From: Pseudomonas poae
Lineage (GTDB): Bacteria > Pseudomonadota > Gammaproteobacteria > Pseudomonadales > Pseudomonadaceae
Assembly: GCA_004000515.1 (NCBI GenBank)
Contig: CP034537.1
Coordinates: 1 to 64,000, forward strand
DNA: 64,000 nt
Direction: 5' to 3'
Below, piece by piece: positions 13,534 to 27,540 of the stretch. The notes under the pieces were generated by a model that saw nothing but the letters and a program-made list of their open reading frames with translations, made no database searches and had not been told where the DNA came from. Each line of letters begins with the position of its first letter. The stretch's first letter is position 1. The position numbers and the translations under genes are program-made.

Positions 13534-14277
13534 ATGAGCAATAACATTTCTGGAAAAGTTGTCGTTATCACCGGTGCCAGTAGCGGCCTGGGTGAGGTTA
13601 CTGCACGCCACCTTGCTGCGCTTGGCGCTCGCGTAGTGCTGGCTGCACGTCGCAAAGATAAACTCGACGCATTGGTGGCTGAGCTGACCAATGCAGGTGG
13701 TCAGGCAATCGCGTATCAGACCGATGTTACCTCTCAGGAAGAGGTCAAAACGCTCATTCAAGGTGCCGTGGACACCTACGGTCGCATTGATGTACTGATC
13801 AACAATGCCGGACTGATGGCGATTGCACCGCTCAGCGATACTCGCACTGACGAGTGGGATCGCATGATCGATATCAACATCAAGGGTCTGCTGTACGGAG
13901 TCGCGGCTGCATTGCCAGTCTTCCAGAAACAAAACAGTGGTCACTTCATCAACATCGCATCGGTTGCAGGCCTGAAGGTGTTCAGCCCAGGTGGCACCGT
14001 GTACAGCGGCACCAAGTTTGCTGTGCGGGCTATCTCCGAAGGACTGCGTCACGAAGTCGGTGGCAGCATCCGCACCACGACTATCGAACCGGGCGCCGTG
14101 GACTCCGAACTGAAATTCGGCAGCACCCACCAACAGAGCCGCGATTTCGTGGTGGACTTCTACAAGCATGCAATTCCCGCCGAATCGGTCGCTCGAGCTA
14201 TCGCCTTCGCAATTGAGCAGCCTGCTGACGTGGATATTAACGAGATCGTTCTGCGCCCAACCGTGCAGGAATTCTAA
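13534..14277 (+). CDS. SDR-family NAD(P)-dependent oxidoreductase
   Basis: An intact 247-residue classical short-chain dehydrogenase. It has the cofactor motif TGASSGLG near residue 14, NNAG at about 90, catalytic Ser in NIASVAGL, and YSGTK with the catalytic Tyr and Lys at about 158-162. The Arg-rich ARRKDK after beta-2 suggests NADP preference. The start at 13534 (MSNNISGKVV) follows a gaggttctc leader; an upstream in-frame ATG at 13498 is less likely. It is divergent from a LysR gene, its probable regulator. The likely substrate is an aldehyde or ketone; specificity is not readable. Confidence 0.85.
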   Translation: MSNNISGKVVVITGASSGLGEVTARHLAALGARVVLAARRKDKLDALVAELTNAGGQAIAYQTDVTSQEEVKTLIQGAVDTYGRIDVLINNAGLMAIAPLSDTRTDEWDRMIDINIKGLLYGVAAALPVFQKQNSGHFINIASVAGLKVFSPGGTVYSGTKFAVRAISEGLRHEVGGSIRTTTIEPGAVDSELKFGSTHQQSRDFVVDFYKHAIPAESVARAIAFAIEQPADVDINEIVLRPTVQEF

Positions 14278-14285
14278 TGAGTTGA

Positions 14286-14311
14286 GGGCCTGTCTCTTCG
14301 GCGTCAGGCCC
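14286..14311 (+). terminator. Hairpin after the SDR gene
   Basis: GGGCCTG and CAGGCCC form a 7-bp stem nine bases after the SDR stop. There is no T-tract, so termination strength is uncertain. Confidence 0.35.
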
Positions 14312-14333
14312 CGCTTATCTGGAGTGAAAAGCG

Positions 14334-14560
14334 GTGAGTGCCACATGGCCCGGAAGAAAGAAGCAAGCGCTCGATGTAGGTGCTGAATGCCCTGCTATTG
14401 TTCAGCAGCTTGCAGCTGTTAGTGGGGCTGACAACGGATTGATGGCAACGGTTATGGAGAGCTATCTACGGAAGAGTTTCCCAGTAGCGAAATCAGGAGC
14501 GATTCGCAGAACAAGTCCATTGACGAGACCACCTCCATCGTCCGCTCCTACCTGCGGTAG
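14334..14560 (+). pseudogene. frmR: Decayed FrmR-type formaldehyde-responsive repressor (C-terminal part)
   Basis: Two frames joined near 14482 read ALDVGAECPAIVQQLAAVSG, ADNGLMATVMESYLRKSF, then DETTSIVRSYLR to the TAG at 14558. This matches the CsoR/FrmR helical fold from the conserved Cys (GAEC) to the C-terminus. The N-terminal helix with the second formaldehyde-crosslinking residue is missing. The LESH motif is MESY here, so the conserved His is replaced by Tyr. It lies 60 bases before frmA, the gene FrmR normally represses. The fragment is probably non-functional, leaving frmA without its repressor. Confidence 0.6.
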
Positions 14561-14595
14561 AGGCACCAGGGTGCCCTCGGTGAGGGAAAATTTAG

Positions 14596-15729
<1,134 letters not shown>

Positions 15730-15772
15730 CCGCCCACTACCCATTCAACGCCAACCACCAAGGAAATTAATC

Positions 15773-16170
15773 ATGTCCACTCCTGTCATTTCTGGCGATG
15801 GCATCTTTTCGCACATCTTTATCGGCGCTGACGACCTTCAGAAGTCGGTCGCGTTCTTCGACGCCGCTCTGGTGCTCTTGGCATCAAGAACCTCGGTCCT
15901 TTCAACAACGGATGGGTACTTTTCGGTCGCGAAAAGCCGGCTTTCATCATCGCCCGCCCGGGCAATGGTGAAGCGCCTTCCAGCAACGGCGTGACGATCG
16001 GCTTTGCGGCCGCCACTCCCGCTGAAGTGGATGCCTTCCACGCCGCCGGCCTTGCCGCAGGCGGCACTGACGAGGGCCAACCTGGCGCACGTGGTCACCT
16101 GCCGGGTGCCTATGCGGCCTACCTGCGTGATCCGGCGGGCAACAAGGTCTGCTCGTACACCTTCGTCTGA
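15773..16170 (+). pseudogene. VOC-family (glyoxalase/bleomycin resistance-like) protein, one frameshift
   Basis: It starts MSTPVISGDGIFSHIFIGAD and, after one missing G near 15873, continues LGIKNLGPFNNGWVLFGREK, then VTIGFAAATPAEVDAFH and AAYLRDPAGNKVCSYTFV. This is a single VOC module of 132 residues with the His and Glu/Asp positions of metal-dependent glyoxalase-fold proteins. It directly follows frmA, as in other mobile frmRA-VOC clusters, and probably handles a glutathione or aldehyde adduct. It is followed by a strong terminator. Confidence 0.75.
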
Positions 16171-16274
16171 AAGCAAGGAAGCTGAGAGCGTTCTGACAGG
16201 GTCAGCACAAGCCTCTATTATACGGCGAGCCTGTTAGATGGACTGTGTAACGCGGTGCCTGCTCATGAAGATCG

Positions 16275-16309
16275 GCCCGCAGCCATGTGTGAAACGCATG
16301 GCTGCGGGC
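16275..16309 (+). terminator. Strong rho-independent terminator after frmA-VOC
   Basis: A perfect 13-bp stem (GCCCGCAGCCATG 16275-16287, CATGGCTGCGGGC 16297-16309) is followed by ATTTGTTTT. It separates the frmA-VOC unit from the DUF3422 gene. Confidence 0.85.
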
Positions 16310-16337
16310 ATTTGTTTTGAAGCGTGCTTTTCAACCA

Positions 16338-17688
16338 ATGAGAAATGAGGTCGTTAAGAAAGAGCCGGCCAATATCAATACGACGACCGTACAACCCACC
16401 CCGACCGCCACCGTGTACGGCATGCCGGCCTATGCCGATCGTGCTGCAGCTGTGGGTGAAGTGCATGCGCGCCCGCATCTGTTGCTTCAGGCCCCCGCGG
16501 TATATTGCAGCTCTCTTTCATGACCGAAGGCGACCAGGCCAGGGATCAGATGGCGATGAGCGAGTTATCTCATCGCTTCGGCGTTGCCGAGCCCGACCAC
16601 GCTACGCCGCTACACGGCGTGACATGGGATGAGGGAGACCTTCACTGTGAAAAGCACACCGAGTTCTCTACGTATCTCTGGTGCGCTTCGCTGGATTCCA
16701 AGACGGAGAGCCTTGCGGAGAAAATCCCTTCAAACATGGATTTGTTCCTCCGGGCCCGGTCGTATCCGGCATCCGCTTGAGACTTCTTCCGTGGATGCCA
16801 GAAACGGAGAAGGAGGCTGATCGCTTCGATCCTGCCAGCCTGTGCTACTCGCTGGTAGAGAACGGCTCTGCCGCCATCTTGACCGACTTCCGACAGGATG
16901 AGGATGGCCTGACGCAGATCCTCATCCTTGCTCGTGATTTGACCCCGGCGCGGGCAGGTGCGCTGGCTCAACGTCTATTGGAGATCGAGACGTACCGTAC
17001 CTTGGCGTTGCTGTCTCTGCCGTTGACGCGATCGATGACGTCGGAGCTGCGACGCATGGAGTCGCGCCTTGCAGCGATCACTGACGAGATGTGTACGAGT
17101 TTGGTAGAACGCCGCGATAGCGACGTGCTGCTTTCCGAATTGACCGGTCTGGCCGCCGAACTGGAAGCTGGCGTCGCGGCAAATCTCTATCGCTTCGGCG
17201 CCAGCCGTGCCTACTACGAGATCGTCGAGGAAAGGCTGGCTGCGCTTTCAGAAGTGGCCGTATCCGGATACAGCACCTGGGCGGACTTCCTGCAGCGTCG
17301 CATCGCTCCAGCCATGCGGACGTGCCAATCCGTAAAGGAGCGCCAGGCCAAGCTCTCCGACAAACTGACCCGAGCCATCGCGTTGCTGCGTTCGTGGATC
17401 GACGTCGAACTTGAACGCCAGAACCGCGATCTGCTGGCTTCGATGAACAACCGGGCCAAGTTGCAATTGCGCCTTCAGCAAACCGTCGAAGGCCTGTCGG
17501 TCGCGGCAATTTCTTATTACGTCGTGAGTCTTCTCGGCTACCTGCTCAAGGGCATTCCGATCGTTCACGACAGCGTGGCGCCGGTGATGGCGGTTCTGGT
17601 ACCTGCGGTGATGCTGACGATCTGGTGGATCGTCCGCAGGATAAGACACGCCCACAGCGACACGGCGGCGGAAGAGAAATCTTCCTGA
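16338..17688 (+). pseudogene. DUF3422 family membrane-anchored protein, frameshifted
   Basis: The N-terminus includes VHARPHLLL, characteristic of DUF3422. The middle (FGVAEPDHATPLHGVTWDEG, FSTYLWCASLDSKTE) and the long helical C-terminal half follow. Near the end lie two hydrophobic segments (AAISYYVVSLLGYLLKGIPI and VAPVMAVLVPAVMLTIWWIV), so it is anchored in the inner membrane with a large cytosolic part. Breaks near 16500 and 16780 disrupt it; the last 335 codons are open. Function is unknown. It is a recurrent partner of frmA-VOC on mobile DNA. Confidence 0.75.
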
Positions 17689-17747
17689 CGAGCTGCCGTC
17701 CTGGCGCGCGATAGCTGCGCCGTCCGTTTGAACAGAGGAGAACAACA

Positions 17748-17792
17748 TGCCAAGCAATTCTTTCGGTGAATCCTCTTGTACCGCTGCGGCCT
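17748..17792 (+). other. Recurrent SFGESS leader, orphan copy truncated by IS5-like DNA
   Basis: After GAGGAGAACAAC an ATG opens MPSNSFGESSCTAAA over 45 bases, identical to 24809-24853 at the start of the UvrA-like gene. At 17793 the sequence switches to the broken end of an IS5-family transposase in the other strand. The leader thus sits 60 bases after DUF3422 with no gene of its own. A third, diverged copy opens the NhaA gene at 22919. Confidence 0.6.
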
Positions 17793-17986
17793 GCATTGAA
17801 GCGTTTGTAGACCTTATTCCAGTAGCCAAACGCCTTGGGCAGGTCTCTCCAGGGACATCCCGTGCGCATGCGGTACAGCATGCCCTCCACGGTCATTCGT
17901 AGATCACGCTTGTTGTAGATGGCCTTGTGCAGCAGAATTTCCCGCAGCTTCGACCAATGCTCATCGCTGAGCAGTAATCGGGGCAT
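17793..17986 (-). pseudogene. IS5-family transposase, N-terminal fragment
   Basis: On the minus strand MPRLLLSDEHWSKLREILLH ... RDLRMTVEGMLYRMRTGCPW, RDLPKAFGYWNKVYKRFN matches the N-terminal DUF4096 region of IS5-family transposases. The frame then runs into the leader sequence at 17792 and loses similarity, so the DDE catalytic domain is missing. A possible terminal repeat (GGGTCTGTTGCCATTTCGC on the minus strand) lies near 18060-18078. This is IS debris. Confidence 0.75.
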
Positions 17987-18143
17987 TGCAAGCTCGTATC
18001 GATGTTGGGTCAGAGCTTCAACGATACGGGCTTGCTCTTATAGATCAATGGGTTAGCGCGAAATGGCAACAGACCCTAGCAAACCAGTTCAAATAACGTG
18101 GCGCAGTAGTTTTATCAGGTCCAAATGCGCCGTTTGGCCTGCG

Positions 18144-19121
18144 TCAGTTTCCCGGCGGTCTCCAGCTGTGCATCGACCCAAACGCTTTCCATCCGCGACA
18201 CCCTGCACCACAGGCTCGCAGGGTCGCCCCATCCGAATACCCGACCTGTGCGGCGACCTGATCGACGCTGGCGTTTCCGGTGCGCAAGAGATGGACGGCA
18301 TGCTCCACGCGCAGGTCCTGGAAATACGACAGCGGTGTCTTGCCCAAAACGCTTTGCAGCCGCCGCGCCAAGGTGCGCTCGCTTGTGCCCGCGGCGCTGG
18401 CCGCCTCGGCGAGCGAGAACCCCTTCGCGAGCCGACTTCTGGCCCAGCACTCGAAGCGCTCCACCATCGGGTCGGCATGCGCAAGGTGGTCGGGAATCAC
18501 GAACTCGGCTTGCGAACTGCGTGCCTCGACCAGCAGATAGCGTGCCACCAGGGCCGCCAGCGCCGGACTGCGCCCGCGGATGATGCGCAAGGCCAAGTCG
18601 ACGTGGGCCAAAGCGGCACCCGCGGTTGTGAAGCGTGTCGAGTTCACGATCATGCGTGACTCGTCCAGCGTGACGTTCGGATAGCGCTGCCGAAACATCG
18701 GCCCCAGCCACCATGACGTCGTCGCACGATGCCCATCAAGCAGGCCGCTCTCTGCAAGCAAGAAACTACCGGAGCAGGCGGCACCAAGGTGCGCGCCAGC
18801 GGCGGACCACTGCTGTAGCACGGCGACCGCATCGGGCACGTCGGGGCGTGTGAGCCGAGCCGAGAGCGTGTCAGGCATCTTTTCACCAAACGCGGGCACG
18901 AGCACGACGTCTGGTTCCGGCACACCACGCGCAGTGACCACGGGGACCGTCAAGCCTTGCGCAGTTCGGATGCGACGCCGCACGCCCACCAGCGTGAGCT
19001 CTATGTGCGCGGGAGCCTGTGGCAGCGAGCCCGACATCGCATTGGCCAAGCCCACTGTGTCGGTGAGCGCCGCAAGCCCCAGATCAAACACGCCATCACA
19101 AACAAGGATGTGGATTTTCAT
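18144..19121 (-). CDS. GlxA-type AraC-family transcriptional regulator
   Basis: An N-terminal DJ-1/PfpI-like domain (MKIHILVCDGVFDLGLAALT; nucleophile-like Cys in LGAACSGSFLLAESG) is followed by an AraC-type double HTH (LAEAASAAGTSERTLARRLQ; VDQVAAQVGYSDGATLR). The natural start is probably 19121; the longer N-terminus begins in AT-rich promoter DNA. The last 20 residues look out of frame (a base change near 18215), so the true stop may differ. It is divergent from the ABM gene at 19236, the likely target. Ligand unknown. Confidence 0.8.
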   Translation of the reverse strand: MKIHILVCDGVFDLGLAALTDTVGLANAMSGSLPQAPAHIELTLVGVRRRIRTAQGLTVPVVTARGVPEPDVVLVPAFGEKMPDTLSARLTRPDVPDAVAVLQQWSAAGAHLGAACSGSFLLAESGLLDGHRATTSWWLGPMFRQRYPNVTLDESRMIVNSTRFTTAGAALAHVDLALRIIRGRSPALAALVARYLLVEARSSQAEFVIPDHLAHADPMVERFECWARSRLAKGFSLAEAASAAGTSERTLARRLQSVLGKTPLSYFQDLRVEHAVHLLRTGNASVDQVAAQVGYSDGATLRACGAGCRGWKAFGSMHSWRPPGN

Positions 19122-19235
19122 GGCAACAATGATATCAATGTTGTCATTATTGTCTATAGAGATGGCTGTCATGAAGACTTAGACTGCAGGCTCGTCGATC
19201 CATTCATCTAACCCAGTTACCCAAAGGATTACAGT

Positions 19236-19538
19236 ATGACCAAGCTCGCCCTGTTTGTTCGCCTCGAAGCCAAACCCGGCCAGGAGGCTGCGCTTGCCGA
19301 CTTCCTGGCCAGCGCACTGCCGCTCGCCAACGCCGAGTCCGGCACCACTGCCTGGTTCGCATTGAAGTTTGGCCCTTCGACGTTCGGTGTGTTCGATGCC
19401 TTTGCCGATGAGGCAGGTCGCCAAGCACATCTGAACGGCCAGATCGCCGCGGCCTTGATGGCCAACGCCGCGACCTTGCTCAGTTCTCCGCCCAATATCG
19501 AGAAGGTCGAACTGCTTGCAGCCAAACTGCCTGCATGA
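19236..19538 (+). CDS. Antibiotic biosynthesis monooxygenase (ABM) domain protein
   Basis: An intact 100-residue protein. MTKLALFVRLEAKPGQEAAL, then ALKFGPSTFGVFDAFADEAG match the ABM/YgiN dimeric ferredoxin-like fold. Such proteins oxidise quinols or protect against reactive quinones and aldehydes without a cofactor. It lies 114 bases from the divergent GlxA-type regulator. A second ABM gene lies at 36151-36444. Confidence 0.8.
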   Translation: MTKLALFVRLEAKPGQEAALADFLASALPLANAESGTTAWFALKFGPSTFGVFDAFADEAGRQAHLNGQIAAALMANAATLLSSPPNIEKVELLAAKLPA

Positions 19539-20150
19539 CAACCCGGCCTTGACCAAATCAGGTCACGCTGCAGGATGGGGCACAAGCTCTACGCAGCGAT
19601 CCCCCCTCGATTGCACTTGCCCAGGGAGCTACCTTCCACAGCGATTGGGGGCAATATTGCAGCCAGAACTTCCAAGCTGCGTCAGCAAGCAGGGGCAACA
19701 TCAGGGCTGGCTGTGATGTTCCGATTCGTCGGGTAGTTATCGAGAAGTACCGACTGTTTGCAACGTGTCGGTACCGAGAGCCGTCTGGGCGAGCCAGATT
19801 TCCGGCCCATTGGAAGTCCGCAGTCCGCAAGCGCGGATCGATCGAGCGATTTGTTGAAAATCAACGACCTAGCATCGGGCCGTTCGGGCTAGTGAGGGTT
19901 TCTGGGGGGCGTAACGATTCGAACTCCTGCAGGGGCTCGGTGGGTGGAACCCTGCGCCAAACCTATGTAACTCAGCGCCTTGCGACCGCTGCAAACTCCT
20001 GCGGAAAGGTGCGGAATCCGGACCTTGATGCCCGCAATCCTACCAGTTCTGCCCTGGTCGGGTCACCAACCGAGCGCATCAGACAGGGCGCCAGTTCTAT
20101 TCCCGTTTGGGAATTGAACCCGCGTCAGCATCCACTCATCCGACGTTCGA
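19539..20150. other. Gene-poor junction DNA
   Basis: No frame with family character was seen on either strand. Two stretches (19905-19935 and 20095-20125) resemble tRNA 3' ends at first sight, but the stems do not pair (see rejected items). Base usage changes around 19870. It is probably remnant DNA between acquired blocks. Confidence 0.35.
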
Positions 20151-20530
20151 TCAGGCGGTGACGAACCGCTCCCGAAATGCTCGCCGGACCTGGTCGTAAG
20201 GCACAGGGCTGGTGGCGTGCGGGACCAGCGCGCTTCTGTCGCCGATGAGGTAGTTGATCCGGTAGGTGCAGTTTCCGGAGGGGTGCAGCATGCCGGCAAT
20301 CACCCGGTCGGGATTCAGAACCCGCTCCTGGATCAGGCGGTCCAGCACGCTCTGGACCTACGGCCCCAAGCCAACGAACATGGCATCTTTCAGTTCTTCG
20401 ACTTCCGCCGCGAAGTGCTACAGCAGGTACTTCCTCAGCAAGGGGTGCTTGGTCATATCCGGTGAGCCACGGTAATCGTCGTCCTTTACGAATACCGGAT
20501 AGCGCAGACATTGATTTTCGTGCGTTAGAG
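20151..20530 (-). pseudogene. 3' fragment of an unrecognised conserved gene
   Basis: On the minus strand the pieces LRYPVFVKDDDYRGSPDMTK, HPLLRKYLL, HFAAEVEELKDAMFVGLGP and RVIAGMLHPSGNCTYRINYL, ending VRRAFRERFVTA, follow each other in one frame. In-frame stops replace single codons (near 20412 and 20359) and there is no start. The HPSGNCTYRINYLIGDRSA block looks like a conserved functional core, but the family is not recognised. It overlaps the end of the LysR gene by six bases, so an insertion or deletion removed its 5' part. Confidence 0.45.
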
Positions 20531-21422
20531 AGGGCCTCGCTGCCCAAAAGCCTCACGCGCAAACTCCAAGAAAGCTGCGCAGCTTTGGAGTCATTCTTCG
20601 GTCAGGGGCATAGAGGATGTGCATTGCGGTATTCGGCACCGGGTACTGCGGCAACAGACGCACCAGTGTCCCATCGCGCAGTGCATCGCTAACCAACTCT
20701 ATCGGCTGTAGAACCACGCCTAGACCAGCTACAGCCGCTGCCAGCAGTGGATCACCTTGATTGATCGTTAATTTGCTTGTAATAGGAACATCTATACGCC
20801 CCTCCGGGCTGTCGAAGCTCCAGTGTGAGCGGCCATCAGAATAGGTAAACCCCAGACATTCCTGCTGCTGTAGATCCCACGGATTGATGATGGGAGGGCG
20901 ACGTGCAAGATAGGACGGCGCAGCGCATAAAACCATCTGATAGGGCTCCAGTGGCAATGCCTTCAACCCACTGCTCGCCAGCTCGCCGATGCGAAATACC
21001 ACGTCGTAACCATCATCAACGATATCGACCAGTTCGTTCGATAACGTTAGGTCAACAGACACCTGAGGATACCGAACCATGTATTCCAGCAGGCGTGGCG
21101 AAAGCGTGCGGATTCCGAACGTGACCGGCGCGTTGATGCGAAGGCGGCCGCTTGGTGTGCCCCGAGTGAGGGCAGCCAGGCTCTCGGCAGACTGCATGTC
21201 TGCAAGGATCAGTTTTGCTCGCGGGTAGAACGCCCTGCCGAAGTCGGTGAGGCTTTGCCTGCGCGTAGTCCGGTGCAGCAGGGAAACACCCAGATGTTGT
21301 TCGAGCATTTTCACCTGTTTCCCTACCAATTGAGGGGACAGATTCAGGTCGTCCGCAGCGGCGCTGAATGAACCCAGCTCAACTGTTTTGACGAACGTGG
21401 CCATCTGGGTCAGGCGATCCAT
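20525..21422 (-). pseudogene. LysR-family regulator divergent from quinone oxidoreductase
   Basis: The start is the ATG at 21422: MDRLTQMATFVKTVELGSFS, with HTH AAADDLNLSPQLVGKQVKML. The effector domain includes GRLRINAPVTFGIRTLSPRL and DGYDVVFRIGELASSGLKAL. The open frame stops at 20553; one extra base near 20561 separates it from the expected tail FAREAFGQRGPL, stop 20525. Length (about 300 aa) is normal. It is divergent from the MDR gene at 21559, which it probably controls, perhaps sensing a quinone or other electrophile. Confidence 0.8.
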
Positions 21423-21558
21423 TATAAACACTCTGTTTCTAGTAATACGCCATCGTAGGCATTTATCTAGCGCCAACCAATGACTAAATTTTGACACCTT
21501 TCGAGTGCCCGGATACCTTCCGGATGTACGTCGAGGCCCATTGATAAACGAGGTATTT

Positions 21559-22550
21559 ATGATGGCACGCATTGTCAGAATTCATGAATACGGTGACGCC
21601 AGCGTTCTGAAGCTGGAAGATCTGGAAGTATCGGCACCAGCAGCAAACGAGGTGCAAATTAGTGTTAAAGCTTTTGGCTTGAACCGAGCCGAAGTGATGT
21701 TCCGCAATCACGCATACCTACAAGAAGCGGAGTTCCCCAGCCGCTTAGGCTACGAGGCCGCAGGCATCGTAACGGCAGTTGGAGCGACGTAACCGAGATC
21801 ACGATTGGTGACTCGGTCGCTCTGATCCCACCTCTGGATATTGCTCGCTGGGGCACCTACGGCGAGTTGGCCAATGTACCGGCCCACCTGGTGGTAAAGA
21901 GCCCTGAGAACTTGTCCTTTGAAGAGGCTGCGGCGTCTTGGATGCAGTACGTCACCGCCTGGGGGGGATTGATTGAACAGGCGAAGCTACGTCAGGGCGA
22001 TTTTGTCATCGTTACCGCCGCGTCAAGCAGTGTTGGCTTGGCCGCCTTCCAAATGGCTCGTATGGTCGGCGCCACATCGATTGCGATCACTCGAACTCAC
22101 GCGAAGAAGCAAGCCCTACTTGATGCAGGCGCTGCGCATGTCATCGTCAGCGATGAAGAGGATATCGTCGAGCGTGTTATGACGATAACTGCCGGTCAAG
22201 GCGCTCGCGTTGTATTCGATCCTGTAGGCGGGCCGTCCTTGGAACCTCTCACGCAGAGCATGGCGCGGGGCGGAATTTTGCTGGAGTACGGCGCACTTAG
22301 CTCTGAACCGACACCATTCCCACTGTTTACCGTGCTGGGCAAAAGCCTGACTTTGAAGGGCTATCTCTACGCAGAGATTGTGGCCGACCCTGAAGCCCTA
22401 GAGAGAGCAAAGGTTTTTATTCTGCAAGGGTTGGAGTCCGGTGCGTTGCGCCCGATCATCGCAAAGACATTCACACTTAGCGACATCCAGGATGCCCATC
22501 GTTTCCTTGAAGCCAATCAGCAGATCGGCAAGATCGTGGTAACTGTCTGA
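21559..22550 (+). pseudogene. Zinc-independent MDR quinone oxidoreductase, one frameshift
   Basis: The medium-chain reductase fold starts MARIVRIHEYGDASVLKLED. The substrate-domain motif RLGYEAAGIVTAVG breaks at 21790 (one missing base), and the frame resumes in TIGDSVALIPPLDIARWGTY. The nucleotide motif ASSSVGLAAFQMARMVGA is present, and it ends QQIGKIVVTV. It lacks the zinc-binding Cys cluster, as in NADPH:quinone reductase (QOR). It is a paralogue of the intact gene at 36543. It is divergently paired with a LysR gene. Confidence 0.8.
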
Positions 22551-22918
22551 CCAGCAATTATGGGGCTGAGAGCGTAATCCTTCGGCCCCGATTCAAGCCA
22601 GCCCTGATGACCGCTTTTGGCCGATTCTGTGTATCCGTCCGGCCAACACACCTTCTTGGCCCCGACGCCAAGGCGATGGTGTCCACCTGATTTAAGTGGA
22701 CACCATTTCTAGCCTTTATGCCGCTGGGCAAACCTATTTTCCCGAGGAGTGGCGCGGCCGGGTTGGTATCAGCCAACGGACAGAGGTGTTGAGCGCAGGC
22801 TGGGAGAAAGACTCGCTTGGCTGCGCTCGCTCGATGATGAGACGCCGCCAGAGGCGGACGCCTGATCGGTCCCTCCGAAACCTGCCCATCGTGATCTCAC
22901 AAACTACAGGATAAGCAC
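22551..22918. other. Intergenic region with inverted repeat upstream of nhaA
   Basis: A possible terminator (ggggctgag ... ttcggcccc) lies at 22563-22588. A perfect 9-bp inverted repeat, GGTGTCCAC (22678-22686) and GTGGACACC (22696-22704), resembles an insertion-sequence end. The last 20 bases (AACTACAGGATAAGCAC before the ATG) match those before the UvrA-like gene (24789-24808), so this is a shared 5' region for leader-bearing genes. Confidence 0.5.
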
Positions 22919-24783
22919 ATGCCAGCCTCTTCTTTTGGTGAGTCCTCGGCGCATATCAGACGGAGACGCGTTGCCCACTATCTACGCACGGAGTCTGGCG
23001 CTGCGGTGCTGCTGGTGATCGTCACGGTTGTGGCGCTCGTGTGGGCGAACTCGCCGCTATCTAACGCCTATTTCGAGTTGTGGCACCTAGACGTCGGGTT
23101 CAACTTCGGGCCACTGCGCCTACACATGGATCTGCATCACTGGGTCAACGACGGCCTGATGGTCGTCTTCTTCTTCCTGATCGGACTGGAGGTGCGTCAG
23201 GAGTTCGCCCACGGATCGCTCCGTGACCGCAGCCGTGCCCGCCTCGCCCTGATCGCGGGGGTCACGGGAGTCGTGCTTCCCGCGCTGGTGTATGTCCTGA
23301 TCGTGAAACTAGCCGGAAGTGAGGGCCTGCACGGGTGGGGTGCGGTGGTCGGCACCGATACGGCGTTCATGCTGGGCACCTTGGCGATCGTCGGCCCGCG
23401 GCTATCGGGTCAGTTGCGCGTGTTCCTGCTCACCCTGACCGTGGTCGATGACTTCCTCGCAGTGTCCATCATCGGCATCGTCTATAGCGAGGAGATCCGG
23501 ATCGTCCCGTTGCTTATCGCCCTCGCCAGCCTCGTTGGATTGTGGTTGTTGGGGCGCACCCGCCAGTGGCGGGCGACGCCGTATGTGTTGATCGTGATCG
23601 TGCTGTGGTTCGCAACCGTGTATTCCGGCATCCATGCCTCCCTCGCCGGGATGGCCGCGGGGCTGCTGATCCCCGCCTATGCGACGCAACGTCACGGGGT
23701 CGTTGCGGCAAGACAGTTGTTCCGTGACTTCTGGCAGTCTCCGAGTGCCGCATCGGCCCGCGCGGTGGACTGCGGGCTGTCCCAGGGTATCTCGGTGAAT
23801 GAGCGGCTGCACGAGTTCCTGCGGCTGCCGACGGCGCTGCTGATCGTGCCGGTGTTCGCCTTGGCGAACGCCGGGGTGGACCTGCGTGGCGGGCTGCTCG
23901 CCGAGGCCTTTGGCTCGCCAGTCACGTGGGGCGTCATCGCAGGGCTCGTGCTCGGCAAGCTCCTGGGCATCGGGCTCACCACGCTCGTCGCCATCCGTCT
24001 CGGCCTGGGCCGGCTGCCCGAGGGCGTCGGGGTGGGGAGCGTGTTCGGTGGGGCGGCGCTGTCCGGGATCGGGTTCACCGTGTCGCTGCTCATCATCGGG
24101 CTCGCGTTCGGCACGACCTCGGACCTGGGCCGCCAGGCGACGGTCGGCGTGCTCGTGTCGATGGTGTTCGCCACGTTGCTCGGGTGGCTGATATTCAAGG
24201 TCGCCGCTCTCAAGTGGGGGGAGGAGACTGCCGATTTGCCGATGGTACTTGAGCCACCAGTCGATCCGGAAGTCGATCACATCCGCGGTCCGGAGGACGC
24301 CCAGCTCACGCTCGTGGAGTACATTGACTTCGAGTGCGCGTACTGTGCACACGCCACCGGTTCGTGGGACGATCTGCGCGCCCACTTCGGGGACGACCTG
24401 CGGTATGTGGTGCGCCAGTTGCCGCACCACCCCACGGGCCGATCGCCGCGCGGGCGTCCGAGGCGGCATCGAACCAGGGGATGTTCTGGCCGTGGCTGGA
24501 CTTCGTGTTCACCCGTCAGCATGCGCTGGAGCGAGAGGACTTGATCGGCTACGCCGCCGAGCTGGGTCTTGACATCGATCGGTTCATCGCGGATCTCGAC
24601 AGTCCCGCAGTGATAGAGCGTGTCGAGCGTGACCTCGTCAGCGCGGTCGCCAGCGGTGCGCACGTCACTCCTACGTTCTTCATCCAGGGTCGTCGTCTGC
24701 TCGGCAGTTACGACGCCCGCACTCTCACCGCAGTGCTCGAAGCCAGTCGCCGCGGCCCTCGCACTCAGGAAGTCCCGTCCTGA
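22919..24783 (+). pseudogene. nhaA: NhaA Na+/H+ antiporter fused to DsbA-like thioredoxin domain
   Basis: Residues 1-10 (MPASSFGESS) are the leader shared with 17748 and 24809. NhaA follows: LIGLEVRQEFAHGSLRDRSR, VGTDTAFMLGTLAIVGPRLS, the ion-binding pair DD in LTVVDDFLAVSIIGIVYSEE, and GIGFTVSLLIIGLAFG. About 11 membrane helices are predicted. After residue 440 comes a thioredoxin fold with CAYC in VEYIDFECAYCAHATGSWDD and the cis-Pro loop VTPTFFIQG. A C-run contraction near 24440 breaks the frame once. NhaA-thioredoxin fusions are typical of Actinobacteria, and its GC-rich codon use supports transfer. It exports Na+ in exchange for H+. Confidence 0.85.
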
Positions 24784-24808
24784 GCGGGGCGAACTACAGG
24801 ATAAGAAC

Positions 24809-27461
24809 ATGCCAAGCAATTCTTTCGGTGAATCCTCTTGTACCGCTGCGGCCAGCGGCCTCGTGCAGGTGCGTGGCGCGCGCGAGAACAACCTCAAAGA
24901 GGTGGACGTCTCTATCCCGCGGAATGCGCTGGTGGTGTTCTCGGGTGTCTCCGGCTCCGGGAAGTCCTCGCTGGCCTTCGGCACCATCTATGCCGAGGCA
25001 CAGCGACGCTATTTTGAGTCGGTGGCCCCCTATGCACGGCGCCTGATCGACCAGGCGGGCGTGCCGGACGTAGATGCGATCGACGGCCTGCCACCAGCGG
25101 TGGCGCTGCAGCAGCAGCGGGGGTCCAGCAATGCGCGTTCCTCCGTGGGCAGTGTGACCACCCTGTCCAGCCTGGTGCGGATGATGTATTCGCGCGCCGG
25201 CACCTATCCCGCCAACCAGCCAATGCTGTACGCCGAGGATTTTTTCGCCGAACACGCCGCAGGGGGCGTGCCCGGCCTGCCACGGCTTGGGTCATGTGTA
25301 CGAGGTGACCGAGGCGCTCATGGTGCCCGACCCCTCCCTGAGCATCCGTGAGCGGGCGATTGCTTCCTGGCCACCCGCCTGGCAGGGCCAGAACCTGCGC
25401 GACATCCTGGTCAGCATGGGCTACGACGTTGACCGGCCGTGGAAGGACCTGCCGAAAAAGGATCGCGACTGGATTCTGTTCACCGAGGAAACACCAACGG
25501 TGCCGGTGTACGCCGGTTTCACGCCTGCCGAAACCCGCTCCGCGCTCAAACGCAAGATGGAGCCGAGCTACATGGGCACCTTCACCGGCGCCCGGCGGTA
25601 TGTGTTGCACACCTTCGCCAATACCCAGAGCGCGCTGATGAGAAAGCGCGTATCCCGGTTCATGGAGGGCAAACCGTGCCCTACCTGCCACGGCAAGAGG
25701 CTCAAGCCCGAAGCGCTGTCGGTCACCTTCGCTGGGGTGGACATCGGCGCGTTTATGCAGATGCCGCTGGACCACTTGGCGGCATTGCTCGAACCCATCG
25801 CACAGGGCGATTTCCGCGCCCATGCAGCGGGTGCGGCTACGGACAAGGAAGCGACCCGGCGCGAGCGTGCCGAACGCGCTGCCACCGGCCATGCGGTCCA
25901 TGCGGTATCGCCCGACGTGCGCCATACCTCCGCGCTGTCGGAAGAAAAGCGCCTCGCCGCACAGCGCCTGGCTGGAGGTGTGATGGCGCGCCTGCGCCAA
26001 CTGCGCGAGCTAGGCCTGGGCTACCTGACGCTGGACCGGGCCACGCCGACGCTTTCGGCCGGCGAGTTGCAACGCTTGCGGTTGGCCACGCAATTAAGTT
26101 CCCTGCTGTTCGGCGTCGTGTACGTACTCGACGAACCCTCGGCGGGCCTGCATCCCTCCGACAGCCAGGCCCTGTACGATGCACTCGACCGGCTGCGCGA
26201 CGCGGGCAACTCGGTGTTTGTGGTGGAGCACGATCTGGACCTGATGCGCCGCGCGCAATGGCTCGTGGATGTCGGGCCGGATGCCGGGGAGCGTGGCGGC
26301 CGCGTGCTCTACAGCGGCGAGCCGGATGGCCTGCGCAAGATTGCCGAATCGCGTACTGCACGTTACCTGTTTGACGAAATTCCCGCACCCGGAAGCCGAG
26401 CACGCGAAGCGACCGGCTGGTTGGAGCTGCAGGGCATCCACCGCCATAACCTGCATGGCGTGGATGCGCGCATTCCGCTGGGCGTGCTGACAGCCGTTAC
26501 CGGCATCTCTGGCTCCGGCAAATCCAGCCTCATCGCGCAGGCCCTGCCGGAATTGATGCTGCTGCACCTGGGCCACGAGCCTGAAGACGATGCCGCCGAA
26601 AGCGCCACCAGCGAAGGGCCGGCAGTGGTCGAAGCGACCGGCGGCCATCTGGCGGGCGACGTGGACGCCATACAGCGCCTGGTGCAGGTTGACCAGAAGC
26701 CGATCGGGCGCACGCCGCGGTCGAACCTGGCTACCTACACGGGTCTGTTCGACCATGTGCGCAAGCTGTTCGCCGCCACGCCCGATGCTCGACGCCGCCG
26801 CTATGATGCCGGACGGTTCTCGTTCAACGTCGCCAAGGGGCGCTGCGAGACTTGCGAGGGCGAGGGTTTCGTTAGCGTGGAACTGCTGTTCATGCCCAGC
26901 GTGTACGCGCCGTGCCCGACCTGCCATGGCGCGCGCTACAACGAGGCCACGCTGAAGGTGCAGTGGAACGGGCGCAACATCGCCGAGGTGCTGCAGATGA
27001 CCGTGGACGAGGCCAGCGAATTCTTCGCGGGTGAAGACGCGGTGGCAAGGCCCCTGCAACTGCTGCGCGACATCGGACTGGGCTATCTGCGCCTGGGACA
27101 ACCAGCCACTGAGCTTTCCGGTGGCGAGGCGCAGCGCATCAAGCTGGCGACCGAGCTTCAGCGCAGCCAGCGCGGCCGAAGCCTGTACGTGCTCGACGAG
27201 CCGACCACCGGGCTGCACGCGTCGGATGCCGACCGGCTGCTGGTGCAGTTGCAGCGCCTGGTCGATTCCGGCAATACCGTAGTGATGATCGAGCACGACA
27301 TGCGTGCGGTGGCCCAAGCCGACTGGATGATTGACGTAGGGCCAGGCGCGGGCGCTGCCGGCGGCAGCATCGTGGTGGCGGGTTCCCCTCAGCAGGTGGC
27401 CCGAAAGTCTGGCAGCCGAACCGCTCCGTTCCTTGCACGGGAGTTGGCGCGGGCCGAGTAG
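24809..27461 (+). pseudogene. UvrA-like ABC ATPase (class II UvrA paralogue), one frameshift
   Basis: After the leader MPSNSFGESSCTAAA, two ABC modules follow: Walker A GVSGSGKSSLAFG near residue 55 and GISGSGKSSLIAQ near 570. Signatures are LSAGELQRLRLATQL and LSGGEAQRIKLATEL, with Walker B YVLDEPSAGLH and YVLDEPTTGLH. Zinc fingers are CPTCHGKR and CETCEGEGF ... CPTCHGARY. At about 884 residues it is shorter than housekeeping UvrA. Class II UvrA paralogues are linked to DNA-binding-drug tolerance rather than to UvrBC repair. One T too many at about 25244 splits the frame. Confidence 0.85.
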
Positions 27462-27540
27462 CTTAGTTTGCCAAATGTTGCCAGCTTCGCGGGGCATTGA
27501 TCGTCGCCATACGGTGGTGACGGTCGCTGCCCGAGTCGCG

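What the first reader, a model, noticed from the sequence alone, without database searches (positions are those of the whole stretch)
17748..24860. A recurring 5' coding leader (MPxxSFGESS) joined to unrelated genes
The same start occurs three times. At 17748-17792 and 24809-24853 it is identical over 45 bases (MPSNSFGESSCTAAA). At 22919 a diverged copy reads MPASSFGESS, where the core differs at synonymous third positions (TTC/TTT, GAA/GAG, TCT/TCG), as expected if the peptide is selected. The preceding 20 bases (AACTACAGGATAAG.AC) are also shared between 22899 and 24789. Downstream of the leader lie an actinobacterial-type NhaA-thioredoxin fusion, a UvrA-like ATPase, and at 17793 unrelated IS5 debris. 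Two copies end at the same base (after GCTGCGGCC). This looks like a portable promoter, RBS and leader module that captures foreign genes in frame, or a recombination target overlapping a start codon. The mechanism is inference.
Basis: partly seen in the sequence, partly recalled or inferred. Interest (0 to 1): 0.8.

Follow-up and report, generated by a model that had tools for sequence, protein, structure and literature searches.

The report
Duplicated start of a uvrA-like gene
The repeated gene start is best read as the ordinary beginning of a plasmid-type uvrA-like gene, copied when a neighbouring antiporter gene joined the operon and left again as a short fragment beside a broken insertion sequence, rather than a travelling leader that captures genes.

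Summary
The three copies are real: ATGs at 17747, 22919 and 24809. The leader is the native N-terminus of the uvrA-like gene: it sits on uvrA in relatives without nhaA (Comamonas and two same-genus genomes with rarA directly before uvrA) and, diverged, in Paraburkholderia, Moraxella and Acinetobacter. An Aeromonas caviae plasmid keeps the order adhC-VOC-DUF3422-fghA-oxidoreductase-rarA-nhaA-uvrA. The nhaA-thioredoxin gene sits between rarA and uvrA with a 49-bp direct repeat (uvrA ribosome-binding region plus about 10 codons) on both sides, so nhaA begins with uvrA's first codons; its Rhodococcus and Tsukamurella relatives lack them. All nhaA carriers read share one joint and one place in the operon, which points to one inherited event. 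Copy 1 is a relic: the upstream region of fghA joined at the start codon to 45 bp of this lineage's own uvrA, then cut into an internal piece of an IS5-family element. No promoter-like site was found on the + strand. In 398 same-genus and 369 same-class genomes the pattern hits outside the window are uvrA starts or unrelated frames. Ordinary operon rearrangement; low interest.

The parts
16359..17688 (+). DUF3422-family gene (frame broken in this assembly), the gene just before copy 1
   Evidence: tblastn to the intact Aeromonas gene, three pieces, 88-97%
17689..17746 (+). Upstream (ribosome-binding) region of fghA; fghA itself is absent here
   Evidence: The 60 bases before the ATG match those before Aeromonas fghA at 55 of 60; maximum of 200 shuffles 38; no fghA match in window 1-40000
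17744..17791 (+). Copy 1: relic of the first 45 bp (15 codons) of uvrA plus the shared AAC before the ATG
   Evidence: 48 of 48 identical to 24806-24853; carries the AGC third codon seen only in this lineage
17792..18079 (-). Fragment of an IS5-family element (ISPa67), cut inside the transposase gene at 17792; similarity ends at 18079, apparently the element's end
   Evidence: 95.5% over exactly this span to two plasmid records, one annotated ISPa67, the other a DDE transposase; the element continues past the break in Aeromonas veronii L047
22717..22865 (+). 3' end of rarA (5' part lost)
   Evidence: tblastn to RarA residues 389-437 of 437
22899..22947 (+). Left copy of the 49-bp direct repeat (uvrA ribosome-binding region and start), now the start of nhaA
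   Evidence: Alignments of rarA-nhaA and rarA-uvrA spacers from relatives
22919..24783 (+). nhaA with C-terminal thioredoxin-like domain (frame broken in this assembly)
   Evidence: tblastn 92-94% to the intact Aeromonas gene; that gene scores above the TIGR00773 cut-off
24789..24837 (+). Right copy of the 49-bp direct repeat = native start region of uvrA
24809..27461 (+). uvrA-like gene (frame broken in this assembly), the native owner of the leader
   Evidence: tblastn 91-97% to the intact Aeromonas gene; that gene passes the TIGR00630 cut-off

Best explanation
The leader is the native 5' end of a mobile uvrA-like gene. In an ancestral formaldehyde/stress operon (DUF3422-fghA-oxidoreductase-rarA-uvrA) a foreign-type nhaA-thioredoxin gene, without its own start, came in at the uvrA start. 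The event duplicated about 49 bp (uvrA ribosome-binding region plus about 10 codons), so that both genes are translated from the same kind of start, and the arrangement was then inherited. Later, in the lineage of this window, a rearrangement removed fghA, the oxidoreductase and most of rarA. It left the fghA upstream region joined at the start codon to a 45-bp fragment of the local uvrA, followed by an internally broken ISPa67 and genes foreign to the operon. Shown: the gene orders, the repeat, both joints of copy 1, and ownership by uvrA. Inferred: the direction of the insertion, that it happened once, and the molecular route (template switching or illegitimate recombination at short homologies).
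For: Leader on uvrA with no nhaA beside it: Comamonas (L013) and two same-genus genomes (L040, L041) with rarA-uvrA, and L039 where uvrA is the only operon gene found in 19 kb. Diverged versions of the same N-terminus in Paraburkholderia, Moraxella and Acinetobacter uvrA. nhaA relatives in Rhodococcus (about 74%) and Tsukamurella (58%) lack it. All 7 rarA-nhaA spacers read end in the repeat (three same-genus genomes have a 7-base insertion in it), with the same joint (TCCTC then GGCG) into nhaA in the 6 copies set side by side. Copy 1 is identical to the window's uvrA over 48 bp, including the AGC codon not seen outside this lineage, and its upstream 60 bp are 55 of 60 fghA upstream sequence. 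The IS fragment starts exactly where the uvrA piece stops.
Against: Over the 29 coding bases of the repeat alone, nhaA copies differ from each other by 0-5 and from uvrA copies by 3-8 (within one genome 4-6), so these bases by themselves separate the two groups only weakly; the single-event claim rests on the shared joint and position. No intermediate was found: no genome with the fghA start region fused to a longer uvrA. Shinella has leader-nhaA without uvrA in the 8 kb read downstream, so replacement of uvrA followed by its re-entry is also possible. Two separate rearrangements both having an edge near the uvrA start is a coincidence this account does not explain.
Confidence: 0.88

Rival explanations
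1. A portable promoter/RBS/leader module that repeatedly captures foreign genes in frame.
For: Three copies before three different sequences in the window; nhaA is of foreign type and fused in frame.
Against: The leader is on uvrA in relatives without nhaA; all nhaA carriers read share one joint; copy 1 has another upstream region; no + strand promoter-like site in 16500-25000; in 398 same-genus and 369 same-class genomes the hits outside the window are six uvrA starts and seven with no uvrA or nhaA match.
Confidence: 0.03
2. The uvrA start is a recombination target (site-specific or hot spot) overlapping a start codon, used once for nhaA and once for the fghA/uvrA joint.
For: Two rearrangements have an edge at or near the uvrA start codon.
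Against: The edges are not at the same base (the nhaA repeat runs from 20 bases before the ATG to codon 10; copy 1 is joined at the ATG and broken after codon 15). I did not search for a recombinase tied to them. Start-to-start joints are also what short homology around AACATG and selection for translation would give (inference).
Confidence: 0.06
3. nhaA first replaced uvrA behind the uvrA start (Shinella-like state), and uvrA re-entered later with its own start, giving the repeat without a target duplication.
For: Shinella has rarA-leader-nhaA with no uvrA in the following 8 kb and no second repeat in the 200 bases read after nhaA.
Against: Needs two events; Shinella may equally have lost uvrA after the insertion. 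It differs from the best explanation only in the order of steps.
Confidence: 0.25

Closest known systems
Plasmid/ICE-borne uvrA-like gene in formaldehyde-detoxification (adhC-VOC-DUF3422-fghA) operons, as in Aeromonas caviae NZ_CP068231, Comamonas sp. NZ_CP101744 and the IncHI2A plasmid of Citrobacter NZ_CP022696
   Same: Largely the same genes in the same order, with the same uvrA N-terminus in the first two
   Different: The Citrobacter uvrA start is only faintly similar; Comamonas and Citrobacter have no nhaA there; the window has lost fghA, the oxidoreductase and most of rarA, and carries the uvrA-start relic and an ISPa67 fragment
NhaA-thioredoxin fusions on Actinomycetota plasmids (Rhodococcus, Tsukamurella)
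   Same: Same two-domain antiporter, 58-74% identity; in Rhodococcus a uvrA-like gene lies directly upstream
   Different: No uvrA-derived start on nhaA there
IS5-family element ISPa67
   Same: 288 bp at 95.5%
   Different: Only a fragment, cut inside the transposase gene and joined to the uvrA relic

Membership tests
UvrA (TIGR00630) | Score above the curated cut-off (729.8 bits) | tested here: met
   Intact Aeromonas orthologue 873.8 bits; the window's own broken frame was not scored
UvrA2 class | Lack of the UvrB-binding domain (recalled) | tested here: inconclusive
   The best profile stretch begins at residue 140 opposite profile position 263, which fits a missing segment; the domain itself was not examined
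NhaA antiporter (TIGR00773) | Score above the curated cut-off (254 bits) | tested here: met
   283.8 bits for the Aeromonas orthologue; the window's own broken frame was not scored
Portable leader or gene-capture module | The same leader on several unrelated genes in different genomes | tested here: not met
   Only uvrA, nhaA after rarA, and the copy-1 relic, in the plasmid records and sampled genomes searched
Portable leader or gene-capture module | A promoter carried with it | tested here: not met
   No sigma-70-type + strand site in 16500-25000 by consensus scan; other promoter types are not covered
Transposition with target-site duplication | Direct repeat flanking the insert, with a recombinase gene or terminal inverted repeats | tested here: inconclusive
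   A 49-bp direct repeat flanks nhaA, longer than usual for insertion sequences (recalled); between the repeats the window holds nhaA and 5 further bases, so no recombinase gene; terminal inverted repeats were not searched for

The most novel reading that the evidence does not exclude
The start region of this mobile uvrA gene is a preferred break or join site (short homology around AACATG, or a site acted on by an unknown recombinase), so that genes entering these stress operons tend to acquire the uvrA translation start.
Probability: 0.05. Interest if true: 0.45.

Novelty: new member of a known kind. Interest (0 to 1): 0.13.

Why it matters
It is a small example of how an incoming gene in a mobile stress operon can obtain a working ribosome-binding region and start codon by duplication of its neighbour's, and a caution that repeated gene starts beside insertion sequences can be relics. 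If the start region were truly a preferred joining site, it would offer a testable route for operon growth.

Tried and rejected
Portable promoter: the consensus scan found one site in 16500-25000, on the - strand, and none on the + strand. Peptide selection: no sign of it in the nhaA copies, where 11 of 15 pairs show more replacing than silent codon changes over codons 2-10; the uvrA copies are mixed; since replacing changes are the commoner kind by chance, this is no formal test. Wider spread: no exact match to the stricter pattern in viral contigs and no match to the 67-base start region in E. coli genomes at E 0.01. Seven pattern hits in other genomes (L029, L032, L034, L037; L044-L046) gave no uvrA or nhaA match by tblastn with ten operon proteins; the only matches were weak adhC ones in L034 and L037, and the frame of L044 was not printed by the script. 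tRNA attachment site: ARAGORN found no tRNA gene in the window. Papers: four full-text searches; the first three listed no paper, the fourth listed two unrelated ones, seen as listing and abstract start only; no paper was opened.

An argument dropped on checking: I first took the distances over 45 coding bases (nhaA copies 1-11 from each other, 17-23 from operon-group uvrA copies) as showing a single event. Most of that gap comes from the bases after the repeat, which are not homologous. Over the repeat alone the separation is weak, so the claim now rests on the shared joint, and the confidence was lowered from 0.90 to 0.88.

The corrected pattern was run on samples of whole genomes with the genome search instead.
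Full report
Observation. The corrected pattern ATGCCNNNNNNNTCNTTYGGNGARTCNTC occurs three times in the window, with a shuffled expectation of 0.08; a slightly looser one occurs three times in the whole genome with up to one mismatch. The first and third copies share 48 identical bases (17744-17791 and 24806-24853); the second and third share 17 of the 20 preceding bases.

Who owns the leader. BLAST of the 67-base start region of the third copy against 72,556 plasmid records gave 12 records and 17 places at E up to 10. Four of these records have E 2-5 and are taken as chance from the listing alone. The other eight hold 13 places. I read ten of them directly (S. stutzeri 3, P. aeruginosa 3, A. 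caviae 2, Comamonas C11 1, Shinella 1). The remaining three (two C. testosteroni, one Diaphorobacter) I know only from listings; two of them have no annotated gene under the match. In Comamonas the order is fghA-oxidoreductase-ZIP-rarA-uvrA, with no nhaA, and uvrA begins MPNPSFGESSCTAAASGLV. Two same-genus genomes also have rarA-uvrA with MPNPSYGESSCTAAA, and a third has the same start on a uvrA with none of the other nine operon proteins found in 19 kb (L040, L041, L039). More distant uvrA genes keep a diverged form: MPDHSFDRSS in Paraburkholderia, MKTHSFGEPN in Moraxella, MKIHSFGEHN in Acinetobacter. Citrobacter MSKKLFGAPP is only faintly similar, and the Sphingopyxis, Deinococcus and Rhodococcus starts do not show it. 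The leader is therefore uvrA's own N-terminus in this branch.

How nhaA got it. The A. caviae plasmid keeps the operon adhC-VOC-DUF3422-fghA-oxidoreductase-rarA-nhaA-uvrA, and two same-genus genomes do too (L038, L043). In all seven rarA-nhaA spacers read the spacer ends in the uvrA ribosome-binding region and nhaA starts with uvrA-like codons; in three same-genus genomes (L038, L042, L043) the repeat has a 7-base insertion. A direct repeat of about 49 bp thus flanks nhaA in the carriers read that also have uvrA. The four plasmid nhaA genes at 90% identity or more have it. The next plasmid relatives, Rhodococcus at about 74% and Tsukamurella at 58%, do not: the Tsukamurella gene has another annotated start, and the Rhodococcus gene, which has no annotated start and shows a break in frame near it, has no such motif in three frames of the 400 bases read. 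All six nhaA copies set side by side pass from the repeat into nhaA at the same point, TCCTC then GGCG. One joint in one operon position is what a single inherited event gives. The repeat's own 29 coding bases are too short to add much: nhaA copies differ from each other by 0-5 and from uvrA copies by 3-8. The nhaA copies have changed residues (MPDASLGESS, MPDSSFGESS, MSATSFGASS, MPASSFGESS), and the TTC/TTT difference is private to the window among those read.

Copy 1. The 60 bases before the ATG match the bases before Aeromonas fghA at 55 of 60 positions (maximum of 200 shuffles 38) and follow a DUF3422 gene, exactly where fghA stands in intact relatives. The uvrA piece is identical to the window's uvrA over 48 bp, including an AGC codon not seen outside this lineage, so it looks young; the S. 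stutzeri and P. aeruginosa uvrA genes differ from it by one base. After 45 coding bases it meets an internal position of an ISPa67-like IS5-family element, whose similarity ends at 18079. The same joint exists in the S. stutzeri and P. aeruginosa plasmids, so it is not an error of this assembly. Downstream lie genes foreign to the operon and then the last 49 codons of rarA; fghA, the oxidoreductase and the rest of rarA were not found in the first 40 kb of the window. The relic is most simply explained by illegitimate joining at short homology (AACATG) with later IS-associated loss, or by a short templated insertion; the data do not separate these.

Breadth. In 398 same-genus genomes (up to one mismatch, own genome included) 11 matched: the window's own, six with uvrA starts, and four with an unrelated frame. 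In 369 same-class genomes (own included) four matched: the own genome and three with no uvrA or nhaA match. The 144 relatives overlap the genus set. The nhaA copies of L038, L042 and L043 have more than one mismatch to the pattern and were read from the fetched loci, so the pattern search can miss diverged copies. Both draws are samples, and the one genome-contig scan was lost to a pattern error.

Verdict. The repeat is real; the portable-module reading is not supported beyond one in-frame takeover of a gene start. The remaining oddity is that two separate rearrangements have an edge near the uvrA start codon. Interest is low.

Noticed in passing
window 13900-27500: Reading frames of frmR, VOC, DUF3422, an alcohol dehydrogenase, nhaA and uvrA are broken relative to the roughly 98%-identical S. 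stutzeri plasmid, where these genes are annotated. Of 20 internal length differences, 16 are of a single base, many in short runs of one base. This looks like long-read assembly error rather than decay; the rest of the genome was not checked.
   Followed up: partly
L025 / L048 (Rhodococcus erythropolis pRhX5): The closest outside nhaA-thioredoxin gene lies directly downstream of a uvrA-like gene next to an alcohol dehydrogenase, the reverse gene order of the proteobacterial operon. The nhaA-uvrA association may be older than the insertion.
   Followed up: partly
L015 (P. aeruginosa pBJ86): Compared with the S. stutzeri plasmid, the block from nhaA-uvrA to the alkene reductase gene lies in the opposite orientation: a later inversion.
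   Followed up: no
window 24772-24790: A short inverted repeat (GTCCCG...CGGGGC) spans the nhaA stop codon just before the right repeat; the sequence after Shinella nhaA lacks it.
   Followed up: no
L042 (same-genus genome): Another deletion in the same operon: VOC lies 16 bases before the last 40 codons of rarA, followed by nhaA-uvrA.
   Followed up: no
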